A stretch of DNA of 64,000 nt from Lachnospiraceae bacterium (GTDB taxonomy: Bacteria; Bacillota; Clostridia; Lachnospirales; Lachnospiraceae): assembly GCA_022769005.1 (NCBI GenBank), contig JALEKK010000031.1, forward strand, positions 1 through 64,000, in the 5' to 3' direction. Below, one piece after another: positions 11,193-20,185 of this stretch. Made by a program: the position numbers and the translations under genes. Each line of letters opens with the position of its first letter. Within the stretch, counting starts at the first letter, position 1. The notes under the pieces were generated by a model. It saw only the letters and a program-made list of their open reading frames with translations. It had not been told where the DNA came from and ran no database searches.

Positions 11193-14100
11193 ATGAAAAC
11201 AAAAAAGCGACGAAGTATATTTGCCGGTGCGCTGGGTTTATTCTTAACATTGGGAGCCGTCACGCAAAATGTGACAGTGGCTTTTGCACAGGAACCGGGC
11301 GAGGCGATATATTATGGCACTGACAGTGATAATCATGCTCCAGGAACAGGCGGCGGAACGGATAATTTGAATGCATTGCAAACATCTGATGAAAACCCGA
11401 CAGAGGAACCGCCGAAAGCGGCTCAAAATGACTTATACACATCATATATCAACCTTGTGGGTGAAAAAACGGCCTTTTACGGCGGAGAAATTATAACACT
11501 TTACAATAATATTGTAATCTCCGGAAATCAGACCGTTTTAGAAGAAGGTTCTTATTCCGTAATTACTATTCCAAAATCTTCATTTCAAAAACCCGTAGAA
11601 AAAGATATCTCAACATCTTTTACCGATTTTAAAAATCTTACCATAGAAGAAACAGACAGTGATTATCGCATTATTACTGTCTATAAAACGTTGTACGGCG
11701 GATATAATGCGGGTACACCGGTTAAGTTAAGCCTGATTCCCGGGGGGATTGTCAACAGGAGCAACAGTATCGTAAAACAGGAATTTTTTGACAAAAACGG
11801 GACAAAACTTACCGAAACAAGTCAGGTAAATATTATCGGTAAGGCTGAAATAGAAAAAATCAGTAACAACAACTGGGGCGCATCAAGGTTAAAAAATGAA
11901 GTAGATGAACATTATGTTATAAAACAGGGAACATATCGTACGTTTCATCCATACTATACATATGTACTGGACAATCAGAACGATCCGAGAGACAGGCGTA
12001 TCTATGCCGCCGTTCCGGATGGGACGTCGGTAAAGGCAGACACGGGCTGGACATATGAAGAATCAACGGGGCGTTATTATAAGGACATTCCGAGAAATAA
12101 ATGGAACAACTCAAATATTACCATTGAGCTGGACTTGGGCGGAATCGATATGTCTTCGTTCGACTCGCAGGATAAGTATAAGCGTTTTGAGGTTGTATTT
12201 TCGACGCAGCCGGTAGTAGACGGAGTTGTTCAGACGGATGTCGGACCTTATAGGGCTTCAAGCAAAATAGATTATTATATATTGAAGTCGGGACCGGTTG
12301 TTCCGGGAGCTACACAGAGTGTATACAATTATGTATATAACAAAACAATAAATCGTGATTATCAACCCGTAAACGGGAATAAATCAGCCACCGGAAGCTA
12401 TCATTTGGGAAGCGGATATTATTCGGACAGAAATCTTACATACTTGTCATATAATCAGGACCTTTTAAATTCACAGCGCATACGGTACTCCCTTGCAAAC
12501 CTTACAAGCTACGGCATTTATAACGGAAAGGGCGATGATGATACACGTGAACTTTCATTTACATCATCACATATAGAAGTAAGCCCTTATACCAATCCTT
12601 CGGAGATCCGTATTATGGTTTTGGGTTTAAATGAAGAAGATACGGAAACATTAAAAAACATGCTGCACGGCACTAAAGCATATGGTTGGAAAGACGGAGT
12701 TAAAACCCTTATATCCGAAGATATTCCCGTTGTCTCCTACGGATCGTACACAGATTCCCATACATCCGAAGGCTGGCAGAAGCTTAACGGAGAAGGAGAT
12801 TATTCGGAAATATCCTTTGAATATCCTGAAACCTTGAAGTTTATCGGTAAAAGCAACATAGATAAGTTTTATAAAGCAATATGGAATGATGTTGTCGCAG
12901 ATATAAAGGAAAGTGCATACACTGAATTGGCAGACAAACTCAGTAAAGAAGAAGCTCCGGTAATTAATTATAAGGCGGATTACGGAAGGTTATATTTGAA
13001 GGGTAAGTATGTCGTAAATGCAGGTGAAGAAGCAACCGAAAATACGGCTGTGGTTTCAGACAGCACAAGAGATGAATTTCGAATGTATTACGAAGATATT
13101 ATGAAGACAAATAATATTTCGATTACTACCGGAAGTCAATATTTTGTGGATGAAACGCTGACTGCAAAGCTTTCATATACACAGAACAGATACGGAAACT
13201 TTGCGGATGCCACGATGCCTGAAAATGCAAATATTTATTATCTTGTTCCGGACGGACTGGAGCCTGTAGATGACGGAGAAACGTTCAGTGACATAAAGGT
13301 TGTCCGAGGATATATAGACGGGTTTAATCTTGTAACGGCTAAACCCACGAAAATGAATATACCTAAGTCTTCGGGAGCAATAAACGATAGAAGTCAAAAT
13401 ACTTACGAATTGAGCTTTACCGTTACAGGAAGACTGCAAACGGGAACATATAAAATTTATTCCTGTATGTCTATTGATAATAACAAGATAGGAGTAGATG
13501 AAAACGGGACTCAATACGGAATCCTTCAAAGAGATAATCCGGGCTCGTCAACCGTATGGAAAAATATACTAAATGATGCGGAAAACAGACCGGACAACAG
13601 GCTTAAATTTACGGATTTTTCGAGTGAGACATTTACAATTTATCCTCCTAAAGTTTTATCTTCATTTAAAGAAGTAAAACTTTCAAAAGATCCGGATTCA
13701 AAATACGCATCATCTCTCGGCAATAAAGCGACTATCGGAACGCCGATAGACTACAGGTGGCTTTTGAAAAATAACAGTACCGGGGATATCGATACTCTCG
13801 AAGTTATAGACATTCTTCCGTATTCCGGAGATAAGTCAATAGTGGCAAGCGACAGCGGAGAATATACAAGCAGAGGTTCAACATTTAAAACTCCTCTTAC
13901 AGGCGTTGATGCAAATGAGAAATTTGACATTTACTATTCTACAGATCCCGTAAAAGGAACCATAAAAGAAAATACTGCCGCTGCATGGAGTGCCTCCGTG
14001 GATGATTATTCATCGGTTACAATGATTAAGGCGGTTTTAAAAACCGGACAAAAATTGTCGGTAGGTGAGTCATGCTCTATCGTAACTCACAATATTATTG

Positions 14101-15398
14101 AAAATAACGATAAAATTCAGGACGGTCAAAAGGCGCATAATTCATTTGCCGTATCTTTGAACGACGGGAATTCTTTTGCGGAAGCTTTGGGTGTTGAAGT
14201 CACGGTAAACTACCCTAAGCGTGACGTTCAAATATTAAAGTCGGATCTGGAAAATCAAAATAAAAGGTTATATAACGCCGTATTTACATTATATGAAGAA
14301 GGAACCGGAGAAAACGGCGGAGACCGCCTGATTAAAGATGACATTACTACTAATCATGACGGTATCGCCACAATTCCGAATCTATTGGTGGGAAAGGAAT
14401 ATTATCTTATTGAAAAGAAAGCTCCCGAAGGATATGAGCGTTCCGAAGATAGATTGTATTTTACGGTTAATGAAGCGGATGAAACAAACAGTGTACAAAG
14501 GATAGACATTTCAAATGACATAAAGAGAACCTCCGTGGGAGTGACTAAAAAATGGATAGGACCGGCCGCGGATAATGTAAATGTTCATCTTTTGGCAGAC
14601 GGAGTTGACACGGGAAAGTCGTTAACTTTAGACGAATCGAATAACTGGAAGGGCACATTTGATAAGCTGCCTGAATTAAATAATGACGGTTCCGAAATTT
14701 CATATACGGTTTCGGAAACACCGATTACGGATTATTCATCTTCAATAACGGGAGATGCGAAAACAGGATATGTAATTACAAACAAAAATACCGAGAAAAT
14801 ATCGATTCCCGTAAAAAAAGAGTGGATAGGACCGCCGACAGATAAAGTTTCGATAAAGTTGGAAGCGGACGGAAATGTTGTTGATGAAATTGTATTAAAT
14901 GATGACAACAACTGGAGCGGAAGCTTTGAAGGATTTCTGAAATATGATGCCGACGACGGTCATGAAATCAGTTATACGGTTTCTGAGGATGAGACGGCAG
15001 ATTATGCAACAAGTATTACGGGAGACGCCGTGAACGGATTTACCGTGACAAATACGAAAAAACCTACGGGATCCATACCTCCGGCAGATGAAGAAAATGT
15101 ACCTCCTTCAGATGATGAACCGGAAAATCCTACATCTCCTTCAGATGAAGAACCGGGAAATCCTACATCTCATTCAGATGAAGGATATGAAGATCCTACG
15201 CCTCCTTCAGGTGAAAAGCATGAAGATCCGGTATCTCCGGACAATGTAAAGAATTCGGAAAACAATACCGACAAAACAGATACAACGCCGAAAACCGGCG
15301 ACAATATGCAATACGGCATTTGGATAATACTTGCGGCTGCGGGAATGGCGGGAGCGGTTCTGACTGCAGTTGCGAAAAAGAAAATAAAGAGAAGATAA
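11193..15398 (+). CDS. Large sortase-anchored surface protein with Cna-B domains
   Basis: 1401 residues. A signal peptide (MKTKKRRSIFAGALGLFLTL to FAQE) is followed by about 950 residues without a recognised domain but rich in beta-strand sequence. Cna-B-type domains lie near 1011-1105 (DVQILKSDLENQNKRLYNAVF), 1112-1195 (GVTKKWIGPAADNVNVHLLADG has its partner in PVKKEWIGPPTDKVSIKLEADG) and 1203-1290. A Pro/Ser/Asp-rich linker with short repeats (PSDDEPENP, PSDEEPGNP) precedes TPKTGD near 1364, a hydrophobic helix and KKKIKRR. It should be covalently attached to peptidoglycan by a sortase. Likely an adhesin or pilin-like protein; the ligand is unknown. Confidence 0.85.
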   Translation: MKTKKRRSIFAGALGLFLTLGAVTQNVTVAFAQEPGEAIYYGTDSDNHAPGTGGGTDNLNALQTSDENPTEEPPKAAQNDLYTSYINLVGEKTAFYGGEIITLYNNIVISGNQTVLEEGSYSVITIPKSSFQKPVEKDISTSFTDFKNLTIEETDSDYRIITVYKTLYGGYNAGTPVKLSLIPGGIVNRSNSIVKQEFFDKNGTKLTETSQVNIIGKAEIEKISNNNWGASRLKNEVDEHYVIKQGTYRTFHPYYTYVLDNQNDPRDRRIYAAVPDGTSVKADTGWTYEESTGRYYKDIPRNKWNNSNITIELDLGGIDMSSFDSQDKYKRFEVVFSTQPVVDGVVQTDVGPYRASSKIDYYILKSGPVVPGATQSVYNYVYNKTINRDYQPVNGNKSATGSYHLGSGYYSDRNLTYLSYNQDLLNSQRIRYSLANLTSYGIYNGKGDDDTRELSFTSSHIEVSPYTNPSEIRIMVLGLNEEDTETLKNMLHGTKAYGWKDGVKTLISEDIPVVSYGSYTDSHTSEGWQKLNGEGDYSEISFEYPETLKFIGKSNIDKFYKAIWNDVVADIKESAYTELADKLSKEEAPVINYKADYGRLYLKGKYVVNAGEEATENTAVVSDSTRDEFRMYYEDIMKTNNISITTGSQYFVDETLTAKLSYTQNRYGNFADATMPENANIYYLVPDGLEPVDDGETFSDIKVVRGYIDGFNLVTAKPTKMNIPKSSGAINDRSQNTYELSFTVTGRLQTGTYKIYSCMSIDNNKIGVDENGTQYGILQRDNPGSSTVWKNILNDAENRPDNRLKFTDFSSETFTIYPPKVLSSFKEVKLSKDPDSKYASSLGNKATIGTPIDYRWLLKNNSTGDIDTLEVIDILPYSGDKSIVASDSGEYTSRGSTFKTPLTGVDANEKFDIYYSTDPVKGTIKENTAAAWSASVDDYSSVTMIKAVLKTGQKLSVGESCSIVTHNIIENNDKIQDGQKAHNSFAVSLNDGNSFAEALGVEVTVNYPKRDVQILKSDLENQNKRLYNAVFTLYEEGTGENGGDRLIKDDITTNHDGIATIPNLLVGKEYYLIEKKAPEGYERSEDRLYFTVNEADETNSVQRIDISNDIKRTSVGVTKKWIGPAADNVNVHLLADGVDTGKSLTLDESNNWKGTFDKLPELNNDGSEISYTVSETPITDYSSSITGDAKTGYVITNKNTEKISIPVKKEWIGPPTDKVSIKLEADGNVVDEIVLNDDNNWSGSFEGFLKYDADDGHEISYTVSEDETADYATSITGDAVNGFTVTNTKKPTGSIPPADEENVPPSDDEPENPTSPSDEEPGNPTSHSDEGYEDPTPPSGEKHEDPVSPDNVKNSENNTDKTDTTPKTGDNMQYGIWIILAAAGMAGAVLTAVAKKKIKRR

Positions 15399-15807: not shown

Positions 15808-16269
15808 ATGCTTACAATCAAAGAAAAACAGGAATTAAATGTAAAAAAAGCTCTTTCATTCAGAGGAATTATTGAGGAGAGCGAACTTGAATCCATTAAA
15901 AGAGATATGGACTCTGTGATTATTAATAACAATATATCCGTAAGAGGCGAGTTTATCACGGTTACATACGGTATAGAAGGCGAAAAGCTGGATATGGAGC
16001 TTATTATACCGATAGATTCCGATGTTGACGTTACGGCAGAAGGGTATCGTATCAGAGACGATGTAAGGATTGAAAATGCTGTTGTTGCTTCTTATCAGGG
16101 AAGTCCGGATACATTTACGGATGTGTTCATGGAATTAAACCGATATATAACAGACAACAATTTAGAACCTGCAACAGCCGGATACAACGTATTCAGAGGT
16201 TCCGTATACAACGAAATTGAAGGTTGTATGGATATATGTGTTGATGTGTATTTGGGAGTTGCCAACTGA
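15808..16269 (+). CDS. GyrI-like/DUF5085-like small protein upstream of the peptide array
   Basis: 153 residues, soluble, no membrane segment. The pattern MELIIPIDSDVDVTAEGY, then a YNVFRGSVYNE strand and an acidic end with a conserved-looking ICVDVYLGV, resembles the effector-binding GyrI-like fold or DUF5085 proteins; this is a weak match by eye. It starts with ATG after AAGAGGA. It ends 82 bases before the first double-glycine peptide gene, so it may be part of that locus, for example as a regulator or self-protection protein. Immunity function is only an inference from position. Confidence 0.5.
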   Translation: MLTIKEKQELNVKKALSFRGIIEESELESIKRDMDSVIINNNISVRGEFITVTYGIEGEKLDMELIIPIDSDVDVTAEGYRIRDDVRIENAVVASYQGSPDTFTDVFMELNRYITDNNLEPATAGYNVFRGSVYNEIEGCMDICVDVYLGVAN

Positions 16270-16351: not shown

Positions 16352-16504
16352 ATGGAAAACAAATTCAAAGTTATGACAAATGAAGAACTTATGAAGTGCG
16401 AAGGCGGAAGTGTTGCAAGAATACTTATCGATATTGCCAAAGAAGCAATTAAAGAGCTTTGGAGGGATATAAATAAACCTAATCGATTTAGACCTACACT
16501 TTGA
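16352..16504 (+). CDS. Double-glycine leader peptide precursor 1
   Basis: 50 residues, preceded by AAAGGAGGTG. Leader MENKFKVMTNEELMKCEGG ends in GG; the predicted core is 31 residues, beginning SVARILIDIAKEAIKELW and ending NRFRPTL. The core would form a cationic amphipathic helix with a charged tail, unlike the glycine-rich cores later in the array. The leader shares MTxEELMxxEGG with the other six. A C39-type exporter encoded 1.5 kb downstream is the expected protease and transporter for such leaders. Confidence 0.85.
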   Translation: MENKFKVMTNEELMKCEGGSVARILIDIAKEAIKELWRDINKPNRFRPTL

Positions 16505-16535: not shown

Positions 16536-16703
16536 ATGGAAAAGCTAAATACAATGACAGAAGACGAAATTATGGTTTGTGACGGCGGAGTGTATCATCC
16601 AAACGGCGGTTGTACTCCAACGATAGAGATTCCTATTTTAAGACCGCAGAGACCTAAAACAAGAGACATTTTTGATTCTGCCTTAAAGAGTCTTTATAAA
16701 TAA
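16536..16703 (+). CDS. Double-glycine leader peptide precursor 2
   Basis: 55 residues, with GAAGGAG upstream. Leader MEKLNTMTEDEIMVCDGG; core 37 residues starting VYHPNGGCTPTIEIPILRPQ and ending ALKSLYK. The core is proline- and arginine-rich, holds one cysteine, and contains no GxxxG helix, so it differs in chemistry from its neighbours while keeping the leader. It lies 31 bases after precursor 1. Function is inferred from the leader and the linked exporter. Confidence 0.83.
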   Translation: MEKLNTMTEDEIMVCDGGVYHPNGGCTPTIEIPILRPQRPKTRDIFDSALKSLYK

Positions 16704-16738
16704 TTACCAAAACAAGTTTTATAAAAGGAGAAAAAGTT

Positions 16739-16891
16739 ATGTTAAGAACAATGACAGAAGATGAAGTAATGACAGTAGACGGCGGTATTGTATGGGTACC
16801 TGTTGTTTGGGCGGGAGTTAAGTGCGCTGCGGCATTGCTCGGAGGAGTAGGTGCAGGTCTCGCAGTATCAAAAATAGTTTCAAGATGGTAA
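16739..16891 (+). CDS. Double-glycine leader peptide precursor 3 (class IIb-like core)
   Basis: 50 residues, preceded by AAAAGGAG. Leader MLRTMTEDEVMTVDGG; core 34 residues, beginning IVWVPVVWAGVKC and ending AVSKIVSRW. The hydrophobic core contains GGVGAG, a GxxxG-type helix-packing motif common in two-peptide bacteriocins, and a cationic end. It is the close paralogue of precursor 7 (same first five and last ten core residues), pointing to duplication within the array. Confidence 0.85.
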   Translation: MLRTMTEDEVMTVDGGIVWVPVVWAGVKCAAALLGGVGAGLAVSKIVSRW

Positions 16892-16919
16892 TAAAGATAA
16901 ATTAAAAAGGATAAAAGAT

Positions 16920-17042
16920 ATGTTAAAAGATATGACGAACAGAGAATTAATGAATGTAGAAGGCGGCTCTGTGTTGGTAACGCTCTTTTGTGCAGGTTTT
17001 GCGGCAGGTATAGCAATGGGCGTGAAGAAGTGGTTTAAATAA
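16920..17042 (+). CDS. Double-glycine leader peptide precursor 4
   Basis: 40 residues with a weak AAGGA site. Leader MLKDMTNRELMNVEGG; core 24 residues, SVLVTLFCAGFAAGIAMG then VKKWFK. The AGFAAGIAMG segment holds overlapping GxxxG motifs and is shared almost exactly with precursor 6; the KKWFK end is cationic-aromatic. The peptide is short for a bacteriocin and may be one partner of a multi-peptide pore. Confidence 0.83.
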   Translation: MLKDMTNRELMNVEGGSVLVTLFCAGFAAGIAMGVKKWFK

Positions 17043-17068
17043 TTTGAGGTTTCAAGAGGAGCAAAGCA

Positions 17069-17179
17069 ATGTTAAGAACAATGACAGAAGATGAAGTAAT
17101 GGCAGTAGACGGCGGTCTTGTAATTTTACCTATTATGCCAACATCTATTCTTAGATGGGTTAGAAAGTTGTTTAAATAA
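17069..17179 (+). CDS. Double-glycine leader peptide precursor 5
   Basis: 36 residues. AGAGGAG lies upstream within a stretch repeated before precursors 5, 6 and 7. Leader MLRTMTEDEVMAVDGG (identical to that of precursor 7); core only 20 residues, LVILPIMPTSILRWVRKLFK. It is proline-kinked and ends in the cationic RKLFK, parallel to KKWFK in precursors 4 and 6. The identical leader joined to an unrelated core suggests leader-core shuffling. Confidence 0.83.
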   Translation: MLRTMTEDEVMAVDGGLVILPIMPTSILRWVRKLFK

Positions 17180-17205
17180 TTTTAGATTTCAAGAGGAGAA
17201 AAGCA

Positions 17206-17352
17206 ATGTTAAGAGCAATGACAAATGACGAAATAATGGAAGTTGAAGGCGGAATTGTGCCTATAGTAGTCGGAGGATCAGCATTGGCAAAAATATTCGC
17301 TGCAGGTTTTGCGGCAGGTATAGCAATGGGCATTAAGAAGTGGTTTAAATAA
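17206..17352 (+). CDS. Double-glycine leader peptide precursor 6
   Basis: 48 residues, preceded by AGAGGAG. Leader MLRAMTNDEIMEVEGG; core 32 residues starting IVPIVVGGSALAKIF and ending AAGIAMGIKKWFK. The last 16 residues match precursor 4 with one change (V to I), while the first half is different and longer. Glycine-zipper character again suggests a membrane-inserting helix. Confidence 0.84.
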   Translation: MLRAMTNDEIMEVEGGIVPIVVGGSALAKIFAAGFAAGIAMGIKKWFK

Positions 17353-17378
17353 TTTGAGATTTCAAGAGGAGCAAAGTT

Positions 17379-17531
17379 ATGTTAAGAACAATGACAGAAG
17401 ATGAGGTAATGGCAGTAGACGGCGGTATTGTATGGGTACCTATTCTTATAGCGGGAGCTAAGTGCGGTGCGGCATTGCTCGGTGGAGTAGCTGCAGGCCT
17501 CGCAGTATCAAAAATAGTTTCCAGATGGTAA
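17379..17531 (+). CDS. Double-glycine leader peptide precursor 7 (paralogue of 3)
   Basis: 50 residues, preceded by AGAGGAG. Leader MLRTMTEDEVMAVDGG; core 34 residues, beginning IVWVPILIAGAKCG and ending AVSKIVSRW. It aligns without gaps to precursor 3, with differences in the middle (VVWAGVKCA to ILIAGAKCG, GVGAG to GVAAG). One cysteine is kept at the same core position. It is the last member with an intact GG site. Confidence 0.85.
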   Translation: MLRTMTEDEVMAVDGGIVWVPILIAGAKCGAALLGGVAAGLAVSKIVSRW

Positions 17532-17589
17532 TAAATATAATACATATAAAAGAAACAAAAACAATTTTCAGAGTAAAGGGATGAGAATA

Positions 17590-17685
17590 ATGGCGGTTGA
17601 CAGCAATGTACTCTTAATTCTTTTTCTTACAGGTTTTATAGGCGGCACGGCACTTGGAATTGCAAAGTGGATAAAAAAGAAATAA
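17590..17685 (+). CDS. Leader-defective relative of the array peptides
   Basis: 31 residues from the ATG at 17590 (AAAGGG 9 bases before), or 34 from the ATG at 17581, which touches the AAAGGG. The start MAVDSN corresponds to the end of the leaders, MAVDGG, with GG replaced by SN and the helical leader part missing. The rest, LFLTGFIGGTALGIAKWIKK, is like the glycine-zipper plus cationic end of precursors 4 and 6. It could be an intracellular or leaderless peptide, an immunity-like membrane peptide, or a decaying copy. Confidence 0.55.
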   Translation: MAVDSNVLLILFLTGFIGGTALGIAKWIKKK

Positions 17686-17801: not shown

Positions 17802-17879
17802 ATGAAAAAGGCGTTGACTGTTATTTTCAGTGTCGGATTTATATGCGGGACAGTAATGGGCATTAGATTGTTTTTTTAA
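17802..17879 (+). CDS. 25-residue core-only peptide
   Basis: ATG with an excellent GGAGG site (17792-17796). The product, MKKALTVIFSVGFICGTVMG then IRLFF, is a single hydrophobic helix. It resembles the second half of precursors 4 and 6 (AGFAAGIAMGIKKWFK against VGFICGTVMGIRLFF) but lacks any leader. The strong ribosome site argues for translation. It may be a leaderless membrane peptide or an immunity factor for the array peptides. Too short for confident proof. Confidence 0.55.
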   Translation: MKKALTVIFSVGFICGTVMGIRLFF

Positions 17880-17965
17880 TACCGAGGATCATCCGTCAAT
17901 AAAATTTAAAAGTATCCGTTTAGAGGCGGATATATATGTGAACTAAAAAATTCTTGAGGTTACTT

Positions 17966-20185
17966 ATGAGATACTATTGTATAAAACAGCATGACATGAC
18001 TGATTGCGGTGCGGCATGTATCGCAACAATATGCAGACAAAACGGTTATAAGATCAGTATTACAAAGATACGTGAGGTTGCGGGAACAGACAAACAGGGA
18101 ACGAATGCCAAAGGCGTTATTAAGGCAGCGGAACAGTTGGGATTTGACGCCAAGGGAGTTAAGGGTGACAGAGAGGCGTTCTTTTCCGGATTTCAGCTTC
18201 CCTGTATAGCACATGTTATTGTTGATGGGCAACTTTTGCATTATGTGGTGATACATAAGATTACAAAAAAATATGTTATTATCGCGGATCCGGGAGTGGG
18301 AATAGTTAAACTCAAACCCGAAGAATTTTTCGGTGATGTTCACGAGCCGGGGAAACCGCCGAAATACAGATGGAGCGGTGTTCTCATTTTATTGGTGAAA
18401 AAAGAAACCTTTAAAAAGGGCGGAGAAACAAAAGGATTGTTTAAGCGTTTTTTCAGTTTATTGGTTCCGCAGAGAAAATTGCTTATGCATATCTTTTTTG
18501 CGTCACTGATATATACGATACTCGGTATACTCGGAGCTTTTTATTTTAAAGAGCTTATTGACAGTGTATTGCCGGACGGACTGCAAAGGACACTTATGAC
18601 TCTCTCGGTAGGAGTAATTGCCTTAAATGTATTTAAGGTTATTCTGGATGCGTTCAGATCTCATTTGCTTCTTTATTTAAGTCAGAAGCTGGATATTGCA
18701 TTATTGCTTGGATATTATCGTCATATAATGGAACTTCCCATGAACTTTTTCGGGACAAGGAAAATAGGCGAGATAATTTCGAGATTTAATGATGCTGGAA
18801 AGGTAAGAGATGCAATTTCCGGTGCCACTCTTACCATGATGATTGATACCATTATGGCGGTTGCGGGCGGAATTATATTATTTATGCAGAATGCAAAGCT
18901 GTTCGGAATTGCGGTAATAATGGTAGTAATCTACATTATTATCGTTGTGGTCTTTAATAAAAAATATGAAACATTAAACCGCAGGGAGATGGAAGACAAT
19001 GCTCAGCTTACTTCATACATGGTGGAATCATTAAACGGGATACAGACCGTAAAGGCGTACAATGCAGAGCGAAAGACAAAGCAGGAAACGGAAATCAGAT
19101 TTGTAAAGCTCTTAAGAAGCGTATTTAATTTGAGCAAAGCAAATAATATACAGTCATCACTTAAAACATTGGTGGAATTGGTAGGAGGAGTCATTATCCT
19201 CTGGGTCGGAGGAGTAAGTGTTATAAACGGAGAAATGACTATGGGTTCTCTTATAACATTTAATTCGTTATTGATATATTTTCTTGATCCGATTAAAAAT
19301 CTTATTAATCTGCAGCCGCAGATACAAACTGCGGTAGTGGCCGCAGATCGCCTCGGGGAAATACTTGATCTTGAAGCGGAAAAGACGGAAAAAGAATATC
19401 GCAAAATGTCGCCTTCAAGTCTTGCCGGAGATATAGAGATAAAGAATTTGAATTTCAGATACGGAACAAGGAGACTTATTTTACAGGATATTAATCTTAA
19501 GATAGAAAAGGGACAAAAGGTTGCCTTTGTAGGTGAAAGCGGTTCAGGCAAGACCACTCTTTCCAAACTGTTATTGCATTTATATGCTCCGGAATCGGGA
19601 GATATACTTATCAACGGAAGAAATATAGAAGATATTCAACTTGAGTGCCTGAGAGAGAAGATTGCATATATTCCACAGGAAACATTTTTATTCAGCGGCT
19701 CAATATATGAAAATCTTACTCTGGGTATGGATAACGTTACCATGGAAGAAGTTACGGAGGCGGCTAAAATGGCTCAGGCTCACGATTTTATTAATGAACT
19801 TCCTCTTCGATATGATACGAGACTGGAAGAGAACGGTGCAAATCTTTCCGGAGGACAGAGGCAGAGACTTGCAATTACGAGAGCAATGCTTAAGAAACCT
19901 GACATACTTATCCTTGATGAGGCAACAAGCAATCTTGATGCCATTACAGAGCGTGCTCTGGATAAGACTCTCAATGAATATACCAAGGACAGAACCACAA
20001 TATTTATCGCTCATCGTTTAAGTACAATAAAGAACTGCGATAAGATTTATGTATTGGACAAAGGCAGGATAATAGAGGAAGGCTCACACAGAGAACTTAT
20101 TAAGCTCGGAGGAAAATACGCTTATCTCGTAAAACAGCAGTCGTTGGAGGAGAATACCGAAGAGAAAGGCGGTGATGACAAATGA
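17966..20185 (+). CDS. Peptidase-containing ABC exporter (C39 peptidase, PCAT) for double-glycine peptides
   Basis: 739 residues from the ATG at 17966 (TGAGGT just upstream). Residues 1-135 are the C39 cysteine protease with Q8, C14 (MTDCGAAC), H92 (LLHYVVIH) and D108 (IADPG). The transmembrane domain spans about 155-450. The ATPase has GESGSGKTTL, signature LSGGQRQR and Walker B ILILDEATSNLD. It should cleave the array leaders after GG and export the cores with the HlyD-like partner. All catalytic residues are present. The gene overlaps the next by four bases. Confidence 0.93.
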   Translation: MRYYCIKQHDMTDCGAACIATICRQNGYKISITKIREVAGTDKQGTNAKGVIKAAEQLGFDAKGVKGDREAFFSGFQLPCIAHVIVDGQLLHYVVIHKITKKYVIIADPGVGIVKLKPEEFFGDVHEPGKPPKYRWSGVLILLVKKETFKKGGETKGLFKRFFSLLVPQRKLLMHIFFASLIYTILGILGAFYFKELIDSVLPDGLQRTLMTLSVGVIALNVFKVILDAFRSHLLLYLSQKLDIALLLGYYRHIMELPMNFFGTRKIGEIISRFNDAGKVRDAISGATLTMMIDTIMAVAGGIILFMQNAKLFGIAVIMVVIYIIIVVVFNKKYETLNRREMEDNAQLTSYMVESLNGIQTVKAYNAERKTKQETEIRFVKLLRSVFNLSKANNIQSSLKTLVELVGGVIILWVGGVSVINGEMTMGSLITFNSLLIYFLDPIKNLINLQPQIQTAVVAADRLGEILDLEAEKTEKEYRKMSPSSLAGDIEIKNLNFRYGTRRLILQDINLKIEKGQKVAFVGESGSGKTTLSKLLLHLYAPESGDILINGRNIEDIQLECLREKIAYIPQETFLFSGSIYENLTLGMDNVTMEEVTEAAKMAQAHDFINELPLRYDTRLEENGANLSGGQRQRLAITRAMLKKPDILILDEATSNLDAITERALDKTLNEYTKDRTTIFIAHRLSTIKNCDKIYVLDKGRIIEEGSHRELIKLGGKYAYLVKQQSLEENTEEKGGDDK

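What the first reader, a model, noticed from the sequence alone, without database searches (positions are those of the whole stretch)
16739..17531. Leader-core shuffling and recent duplication inside the peptide array
Precursors 3 and 7 share core ends (IVWVP and AVSKIVSRW); precursors 4 and 6 share AGFAAGIAMG and KKWFK; precursors 5 and 7 have an identical leader with unrelated cores. The spacer plus ribosome site (ATTTCAAGAGGA) is repeated before 5, 6 and 7. The leader is thus a conserved cassette onto which different cores have been placed, a sign of diversifying evolution by recombination.
Basis: seen in the sequence. Interest (0 to 1): 0.66.

Follow-up and report, generated by a model that had tools for sequence, protein, structure and literature searches.

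The report
Bacteriocin array shuffling leaders and cores
A gut Lachnospiraceae bacterium carries a row of seven small secreted, probably antibacterial, peptide genes in which one export tag and its spacer are reused in front of different peptides, so whole peptides can be swapped by recombination; leaderless look-alikes beside it may protect the producer.

Summary
P3-P7 (16739-17531) are five of seven double-glycine precursors feeding a C39 ABC exporter (PCAT) and HlyD partner. P3/P7 cores are 82% identical (z 20), and P4/P6 cores 75% (z 15). P5 and P7 have identical 16-residue leaders but cores no more alike than shuffled. One correction: the spacer before P5 differs from ATTTCAAGAGGA by one base.

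The shuffling reading is largely supported. The shared unit runs from the previous stop codon to GG (P5/P7 73/77 nt), and homology ends 0-6 nt after GG in P3/P5, P5/P7, P5/P6 and P6/P7. A related genome shows the same thing independently: a 118-nt repeat (113 identical) ending exactly at GG before two unrelated cores. Qualifications: P3/P7 moved leader and core together, the P4/P6 block starts inside the core, P5 looks like an A/B fusion remnant, diversifying selection is not shown, and no strains could be compared. Leader recombination is known from pneumococcal blp.

Beyond the finding, leaderless P8 and P9 copy the GxxxG helix of the P4/P6 cores. Similar leaderless look-alikes follow two-peptide genes in other families, matching their own locus best (6/10, permutation P=1e-4). 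They are candidate competitive immunity peptides, as proposed for gallocin's GIP.

The parts
15808..16269 (+). 153-aa protein, weak DUF5085 / AraC-effector-binding (GyrI-like) match, first gene before the array; role unknown
   Evidence: PF16895 E 1.5e-5, below its cut-off; PDB 9rtm AraC effector-binding domain E 0.27
16352..16504 (+). P1, GG precursor, amphipathic core SVARILIDIAKEAIKELWRDINKPNRFRPTL
   Evidence: strong RBS aaaggaggtg
16536..16703 (+). P2, GG precursor, hydrophilic proline-rich core
16739..16891 (+). P3, GG precursor, type A core with GxxxG
   Evidence: core 82% identical to P7, z 20; TIGR03949 E 0.0014, below cut-off
16920..17042 (+). P4, GG precursor, type B core (GxxxGxxxG)
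   Evidence: core 75% identical to P6, z 15; TIGR03949 above cut-off
17040..17116 (+). repeat unit 1: stop codon of P4, spacer, RBS, leader of P5 up to GG
   Evidence: 73/77 identical to unit 3
17069..17179 (+). P5, GG precursor; leader identical to P7; short core with A-like start and B-like end
17177..17253 (+). repeat unit 2: stop codon of P5, spacer, RBS, leader of P6 up to GG
   Evidence: 65/77 to unit 1, 63/77 to unit 3
17206..17352 (+). P6, GG precursor, type B core
   Evidence: TIGR03949 E 7e-9, above cut-off
17350..17426 (+). repeat unit 3: stop codon of P6, spacer, RBS, leader of P7 up to GG
17379..17531 (+). P7, GG precursor, type A core; 5' flank like P5, core like P3
   Evidence: 5' flank 27/30 to P5 against 15/30 to P3; core 94/105 nt to P3; TIGR03949 above cut-off
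16991..17122 (+). duplicated block 1 (second copy 17301-17432): B core 3' half, spacer, next leader
   Evidence: 125/132 identical at offset 310, ends 6 nt after GG
16733..16900 (+). duplicated block 2 (second copy 17373-17540): whole P3/P7 gene from 6 nt before the ATG to 9 nt after the stop codon
   Evidence: 154/168 identical at offset 640
17581..17685 (+). P8, leaderless peptide with B-type GxxxG helix (alternative start 17590; GG replaced by SN); candidate immunity peptide
   Evidence: best of 88 cores is P4 in the same locus; z 11.7
17802..17879 (+). P9, 25-aa leaderless peptide with B-type GxxxG helix, RBS ggaggt; candidate immunity peptide
   Evidence: best of 88 cores is P6 in the same locus; z 9.2
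17963..20185 (+). PCAT: C39 peptidase-ABC exporter that cleaves at GG and exports
   Evidence: TIGR01193 712 bits, cut-off 524; PF03412, PF00664, PF00005
20182..21738 (+). HlyD/BlpB-type accessory protein
   Evidence: PF13437 above cut-off; TIGR01843 and TIGR01000 below their cut-offs

Best explanation
This is a class IIb-like (two-peptide, GxxxG) bacteriocin array served by one PCAT/HlyD exporter. Shown: seven precursors with PCAT-type leaders; cores of types A (P3, P7) and B (P4, P6); and near-identical [stop codon, spacer, RBS, leader] repeats between cores, with homology ending at GG. Inferred: these repeats act as homologous anchors, so RecA-type recombination (unequal crossing-over within the array, or with incoming arrays) duplicates, deletes or swaps cores without disturbing the start signal or the export tag. 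The exporter reads only the leader, so any core placed after GG is exported. Also inferred: the mature A and B peptides pair through GxxxG helices to permeabilise rivals, while leaderless P8 and P9 stay in the producer's membrane and compete for the partner helix, giving immunity.
For: The PCAT is a TIGR01193 member with a C39 domain. All seven leaders have hydrophobic residues at -4, -7, -12 and -15, the positions PCATs read (from the sequences; rule from PMC7018657). P4, P6 and P7 exceed the TIGR03949 class IIb cut-off. Homology ends 0-6 nt after GG in P3/P5, P5/P7, P5/P6 and P6/P7, while the noncoding spacers are up to 95% identical and cores are at chance. P7 is a mosaic: 5' flank like P5, core like P3. 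In the related genome G369 a 118-nt spacer-leader repeat (113/118) ends exactly at GG before two unrelated cores. In the G369/G431 species pair the exporter is 90% identical but everything upstream of it differs, so payload exchange also happens at locus scale. B cores match across genera (B4/B6 against G369, z 10) while leaders match within genomes. The leaderless mimics P8 and P9 and their relatives match their own locus best (6/10, P=1e-4). L128 and L129 were fetched after the idea was noted.
Against: No strain-level data. The leader copies differ by only 1-2 bases, so the direction and order of events cannot be resolved, and the GG-end cases share leaders and are not independent. P3/P7 and P4/P6 do not break at GG. 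No activity, transcription or export data exist. A-type cores have no clear relative elsewhere, so A/B pairing is inferred. A looser first scan for leaderless mimics was not significant (P=0.17); the filter used was defined after examples had been seen.
Confidence: 0.72

Rival explanations
1. Ordinary tandem gene duplication followed by fast point-mutation divergence of the cores, with leaders held by export selection; no recombination at GG.
For: P3 and P7 moved as whole genes with leader and core of similar dS (0.11 and 0.14). The N-half of that core has 6.5 nonsynonymous against 0.5 synonymous changes.
Against: Noncoding spacers are up to 95% identical next to cores at chance level (P5/P7; G369 repeat of 118 nt), and the leader's synonymous sites are almost unchanged (1 of about 10; P about 0.002 if saturated). 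P7 is mosaic.
Confidence: 0.15
2. Concerted evolution: gene conversion homogenises spacers and leaders of long-separate genes within each genome, so cores are old and never moved.
For: Leaders cluster by genome and cores by type across genera. The P4 leader is old (dS about 1) while its downstream block is young.
Against: The P7 mosaic and the duplicated P3/P7 cores show that cores themselves were copied. Conversion tracts ending at GG leave the same mark, however, so the two cannot be separated with one genome.
Confidence: 0.3
3. P5, P8 and P9 are decay products: P5 an internal deletion fusing A and B cores, P8 and P9 precursors that lost their leaders.
For: P5 has an A-like start and a B-like end. 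P8 keeps MAVD but has SN in place of GG.
Against: G369 has a leaderless B-type peptide in the same position before the PCAT with an intact frame and RBS. Leaderless mimics recur in other families, also as orphans near LytTR-type regulators. P9 has a strong RBS.
Confidence: 0.25

Closest known systems
Streptococcus pneumoniae blp bacteriocin locus (BlpAB and BlpI/J/K/M/N/O)
   Same: Several GG precursors share one PCAT; few leader types carry many cores. Recombination is reported to have exchanged the first 12 residues of blpN variants with blpM and blpK, and to explain two leader types within blpN and blpK, plus a BlpM-BlpN fusion (PMC4860687).
   Different: No BlpRH regulators or canonical immunity region found beside this array. 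Here the repeated unit includes the noncoding spacer, from stop codon to GG, in a compact seven-gene array, and leaderless core mimics follow.
Gallocin A operon gllA2-gllA1-gip
   Same: Two GG peptides followed by a small leaderless peptide. GIP is necessary and sufficient for immunity and is modelled as a structural mimic competing for the partner (PMC10100652).
   Different: GIP mimicry was shown by structural model of disulfide hairpins. Here the resemblance is in sequence, in the GxxxG helix of one partner, and specific to the locus; function is untested.
TIGR03949 lactobin A/cerein 7B class IIb bacteriocins
   Same: P4, P6 and P7 score above the curated cut-off; GG leader, GxxxG.
   Different: P1, P2, P3 and P5 do not reach the cut-off; seven precursors rather than a pair.

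Membership tests
PCAT-exported GG peptide locus | C39 peptidase-ABC exporter adjacent | tested here: met
   TIGR01193 712 bits against cut-off 524; PF03412 E 1.9e-34
PCAT-exported GG peptide locus | leader ending in GG with hydrophobic residues at -4, -7, -12, -15 | tested here: met
   All seven leaders, e.g. MLRTMTEDEVMAVDGG has V, V, M, L (rule from PMC7018657)
Class IIb bacteriocin (TIGR03949) | curated HMM score | tested here: met
   Met for P4 (25.0), P6 (35.3), P7 (24.9) against 21.5; not met for P1, P2, P3, P5
Class IIb bacteriocin | GxxxG motif in both partner peptides | tested here: met
   B cores GFAAGIAMG; A cores GVAAG or GVGAG
Class IIb bacteriocin | two peptides needed together for killing | not testable with these tools
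   needs peptides and assays
Class IIb bacteriocin | dedicated immunity gene beside the structural genes | tested here: inconclusive
   No known immunity family found near the array; only P8, P9 and the DUF5085-like gene are candidates
blp-like shuffled array | same leader before different cores with break at GG | tested here: met
blp-like shuffled array | variation of content and order between strains | not testable with these tools
   one genome per species held; no near-identical array in 61 relatives
GIP-like competitive immunity peptide | leaderless small membrane peptide after the pair, resembling a partner peptide | tested here: met
   P8 z 11.7, P9 z 9.2; 6/10 own-locus best, P=1e-4
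GIP-like competitive immunity peptide | confers immunity | not testable with these tools
   needs expression in a sensitive strain

The most novel reading that the evidence does not exclude
P8 and P9 belong to a widespread, unnamed class of leaderless immunity peptides that arise from bacteriocin cores by losing the export leader and protect by offering a decoy GxxxG helix. Toxin and antidote would then share one sequence origin, and each shuffled core can generate its own antidote.
Probability: 0.4. Interest if true: 0.7.

Novelty: new member of a known kind. Interest (0 to 1): 0.45.

Why it matters
It gives nucleotide-level evidence, in two gut genera, of how bacteriocin arrays can be rebuilt: the repeated spacer-leader is a recombination anchor and the exporter does not care what follows GG. 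The leaderless mimics make the open question of class IIb self-immunity directly testable with small peptides, and offer a rule for finding immunity genes that no family model recognises (no match in NCBIfam or Pfam).

Tried and rejected
(2) Conserved flanks or an empty site: the uracil-DNA glycosylase gene downstream has relatives in three congeners, but their neighbourhoods share no synteny with the window, so insertion could not be dated.
(3) First mechanical test of leaderless mimics over all hydrophobic small ORFs: not significant (P=0.17). It became significant once restricted to GxxxG ORFs downstream of a GG precursor. The restriction followed from examples, so L128 and L129, fetched later, carry most weight.
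(4) Searching for more mimics in the genera of G449 and G087 added none. Order-wide, most weak hits were unrelated genes.
(5) No plasmid record carries the related alpha peptide or its mimic.
(6) A relative of G369's third core to type A was not supported (z 2-2.6).
(7) Promoter scan gave no more sites than chance.
(8) A modified-peptide (RiPP enzyme) reading was rejected because no modification enzyme lies next to the array.

Full report
WHAT IS THERE. The window comes from a Lachnospiraceae-like genome of 1.47 Mb in 38 contigs (named relatives of the exporter are mainly gut and rumen Lachnospiraceae). Between a 153-aa gene (15808-16269) and an exporter operon lie seven GG precursors, P1-P7, and two leaderless peptides, P8 and P9, all on the plus strand with gaps of 26-117 nt and good ribosome sites for most. 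The exporter is a C39 peptidase ABC transporter followed by an HlyD-type partner. All seven leaders carry hydrophobic residues at -4, -7, -12 and -15, which PCATs read (PMC7018657).

CHECK OF THE OBSERVATION. All stated similarities are real. Cores: P3/P7 28/34 (z 20), P4/P6 18/24 (z 15). Leaders: P3/P5/P7 15-16 of 16. P5's core is at chance against P7. The only slip is one base of the spacer before P5.

WHERE HOMOLOGY ENDS. At fixed offsets, the best blocks are: P4/P5 against P6/P7, 125/132 nt, ending 6 nt after GG; P3/P5, 52/54, ending 6 nt after GG; P5/P6, 76/88, ending at GG; P6/P7, 79/94, ending about 5 nt after GG; and P3/P7, 154/168, covering the whole gene from 6 nt before the ATG to 9 nt after the stop codon. 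Units from stop codon to GG are 73/77, 65/77 and 63/77 identical. P7 is a mosaic: its 30-nt 5' flank matches P5 at 27 positions and P3 at 15, whereas its core matches P3 at 94/105. Because noncoding spacer and synonymous leader sites are nearly unchanged beside cores at chance level, core replacement or leader conversion fits and point-mutation divergence does not.

P5 IS SPECIAL. Its 20-residue core begins like type A (LVILPI against IVWVPI; 14/21 nt, P 3e-4) and ends like type B (RKLFK against KKWFK; 16/24 nt, 0 of 20,000 shuffles). It may be an A-B fusion with an internal deletion; the stretches are short and the test was made after looking.

SELECTION. P3/P7: leader dS 0.11, core dS 0.14, core dN/dS 0.79. 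Changes concentrate in the N-half (6.5 nonsynonymous, 0.5 synonymous) against the C-half (1 and 3), Fisher P 0.02-0.09. This is suggestive, not proof of diversifying selection.

RELATIVES. Eighteen of 397 family genomes and 27 of 392 order genomes carry a close exporter. Most have precursors near it with different cores. In G369 (exporter 80% identical) two precursors share a 118-nt spacer-leader repeat, 113 identical, running from the preceding stop codon exactly to GG, before unrelated cores. This repeat is not the window's sequence, so it is a second, independent case. G369's second core is type B (z 10 to P4 and P6) although its leader resembles its own neighbour more than the window's. 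G369 and its congener G431 share a 90% identical exporter region but entirely different upstream payloads. In the window's genus sample only this genome carries a close relative of the exporter; G007 has a 37% homologue.

LEADERLESS MIMICS. P8 and P9 share GxxxGxxxG with the P4 and P6 cores. A profile of this family hits only the window and G369 among 397 genomes, and both have it with and without a leader. G369's leaderless copy lies at the same place, just before the exporter. A second mimic family follows alpha-beta pairs: L128 alpha CYDLGTYVGKAIAHATR against leaderless SYLVGTYVGKFLAHTYH; L129 CYELGTYTGKALAHWLS against MYFLGTEVGKAIAYMLR; L072 CYDLGKNLGEAIYYATH against FYNLGKNIGELVYYLSIR; L014 CYEIGYAAGKAFVHATSR against LYNIGYGVGTAIYRIFG. 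Orphan copies occur without a pair, in L126 and L071 near LytTR-type regulators and in L147. Among ten leaderless GxxxG ORFs within 500 nt downstream of a precursor, six have their best match among 88 cores in their own locus (permutation mean 1.2, P=1e-4). No NCBIfam or Pfam model covers them. The gallocin A operon has the same order and its third gene is sufficient for immunity, with mimicry proposed from models (PMC10100652), so immunity is the best guess here.

HOW IT PROBABLY WORKS. Shown: repeats, breakpoints, exporter, leaders, mimics. Inferred: homologous recombination between the repeats moves cores; A and B pair by GxxxG; P8 and P9 protect by competition.

PRIOR ART. Leader exchange between blp peptides was reported in pneumococcus (PMC4860687). 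Class IIb peptides and GxxxG are reviewed in PMC8538875, which says class IIb immunity is little understood. The finding is therefore a new, clear member of a known kind; the sequence-level mimics are the less expected part.

Noticed in passing
   Followed up: yes
window 15808-16269: Stand-alone GyrI/AraC-effector-binding-like protein (weak DUF5085) directly before the array; possible sensor or drug-binding protein.
   Followed up: partly
window 11193-15398: 1401-aa surface protein with SpaA and Cna_B domains and a TPKTG sorting-like end, upstream of the array.
   Followed up: partly
L065, about 2.8-3.1 kb upstream of its PCAT: Fragments of a second, broken PCAT (N-terminal and membrane pieces) upstream of the G369 array, a sign of past rearrangement.
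   Followed up: no
L014 and L069: Conserved three-gene module in two genomes: core beginning xFGVDDAIFW, a GxxxG core, and a leaderless two-helix protein of 53-60 aa, probably a two-peptide bacteriocin with immunity protein.
   Followed up: partly
L095 (G431): Next to a 90% identical exporter, a different payload: a 631-aa protein, a flavodoxin-like reductase and an M50-like protein, perhaps a modified-peptide cluster.
   Followed up: partly
L080: Precursors with 31-residue leaders ending in GG or GA (MDKRTxxEFESMLxxFE...VNGA), leaders 71-86% identical in DNA and cores different: a third possible case of leader reuse.
   Followed up: no
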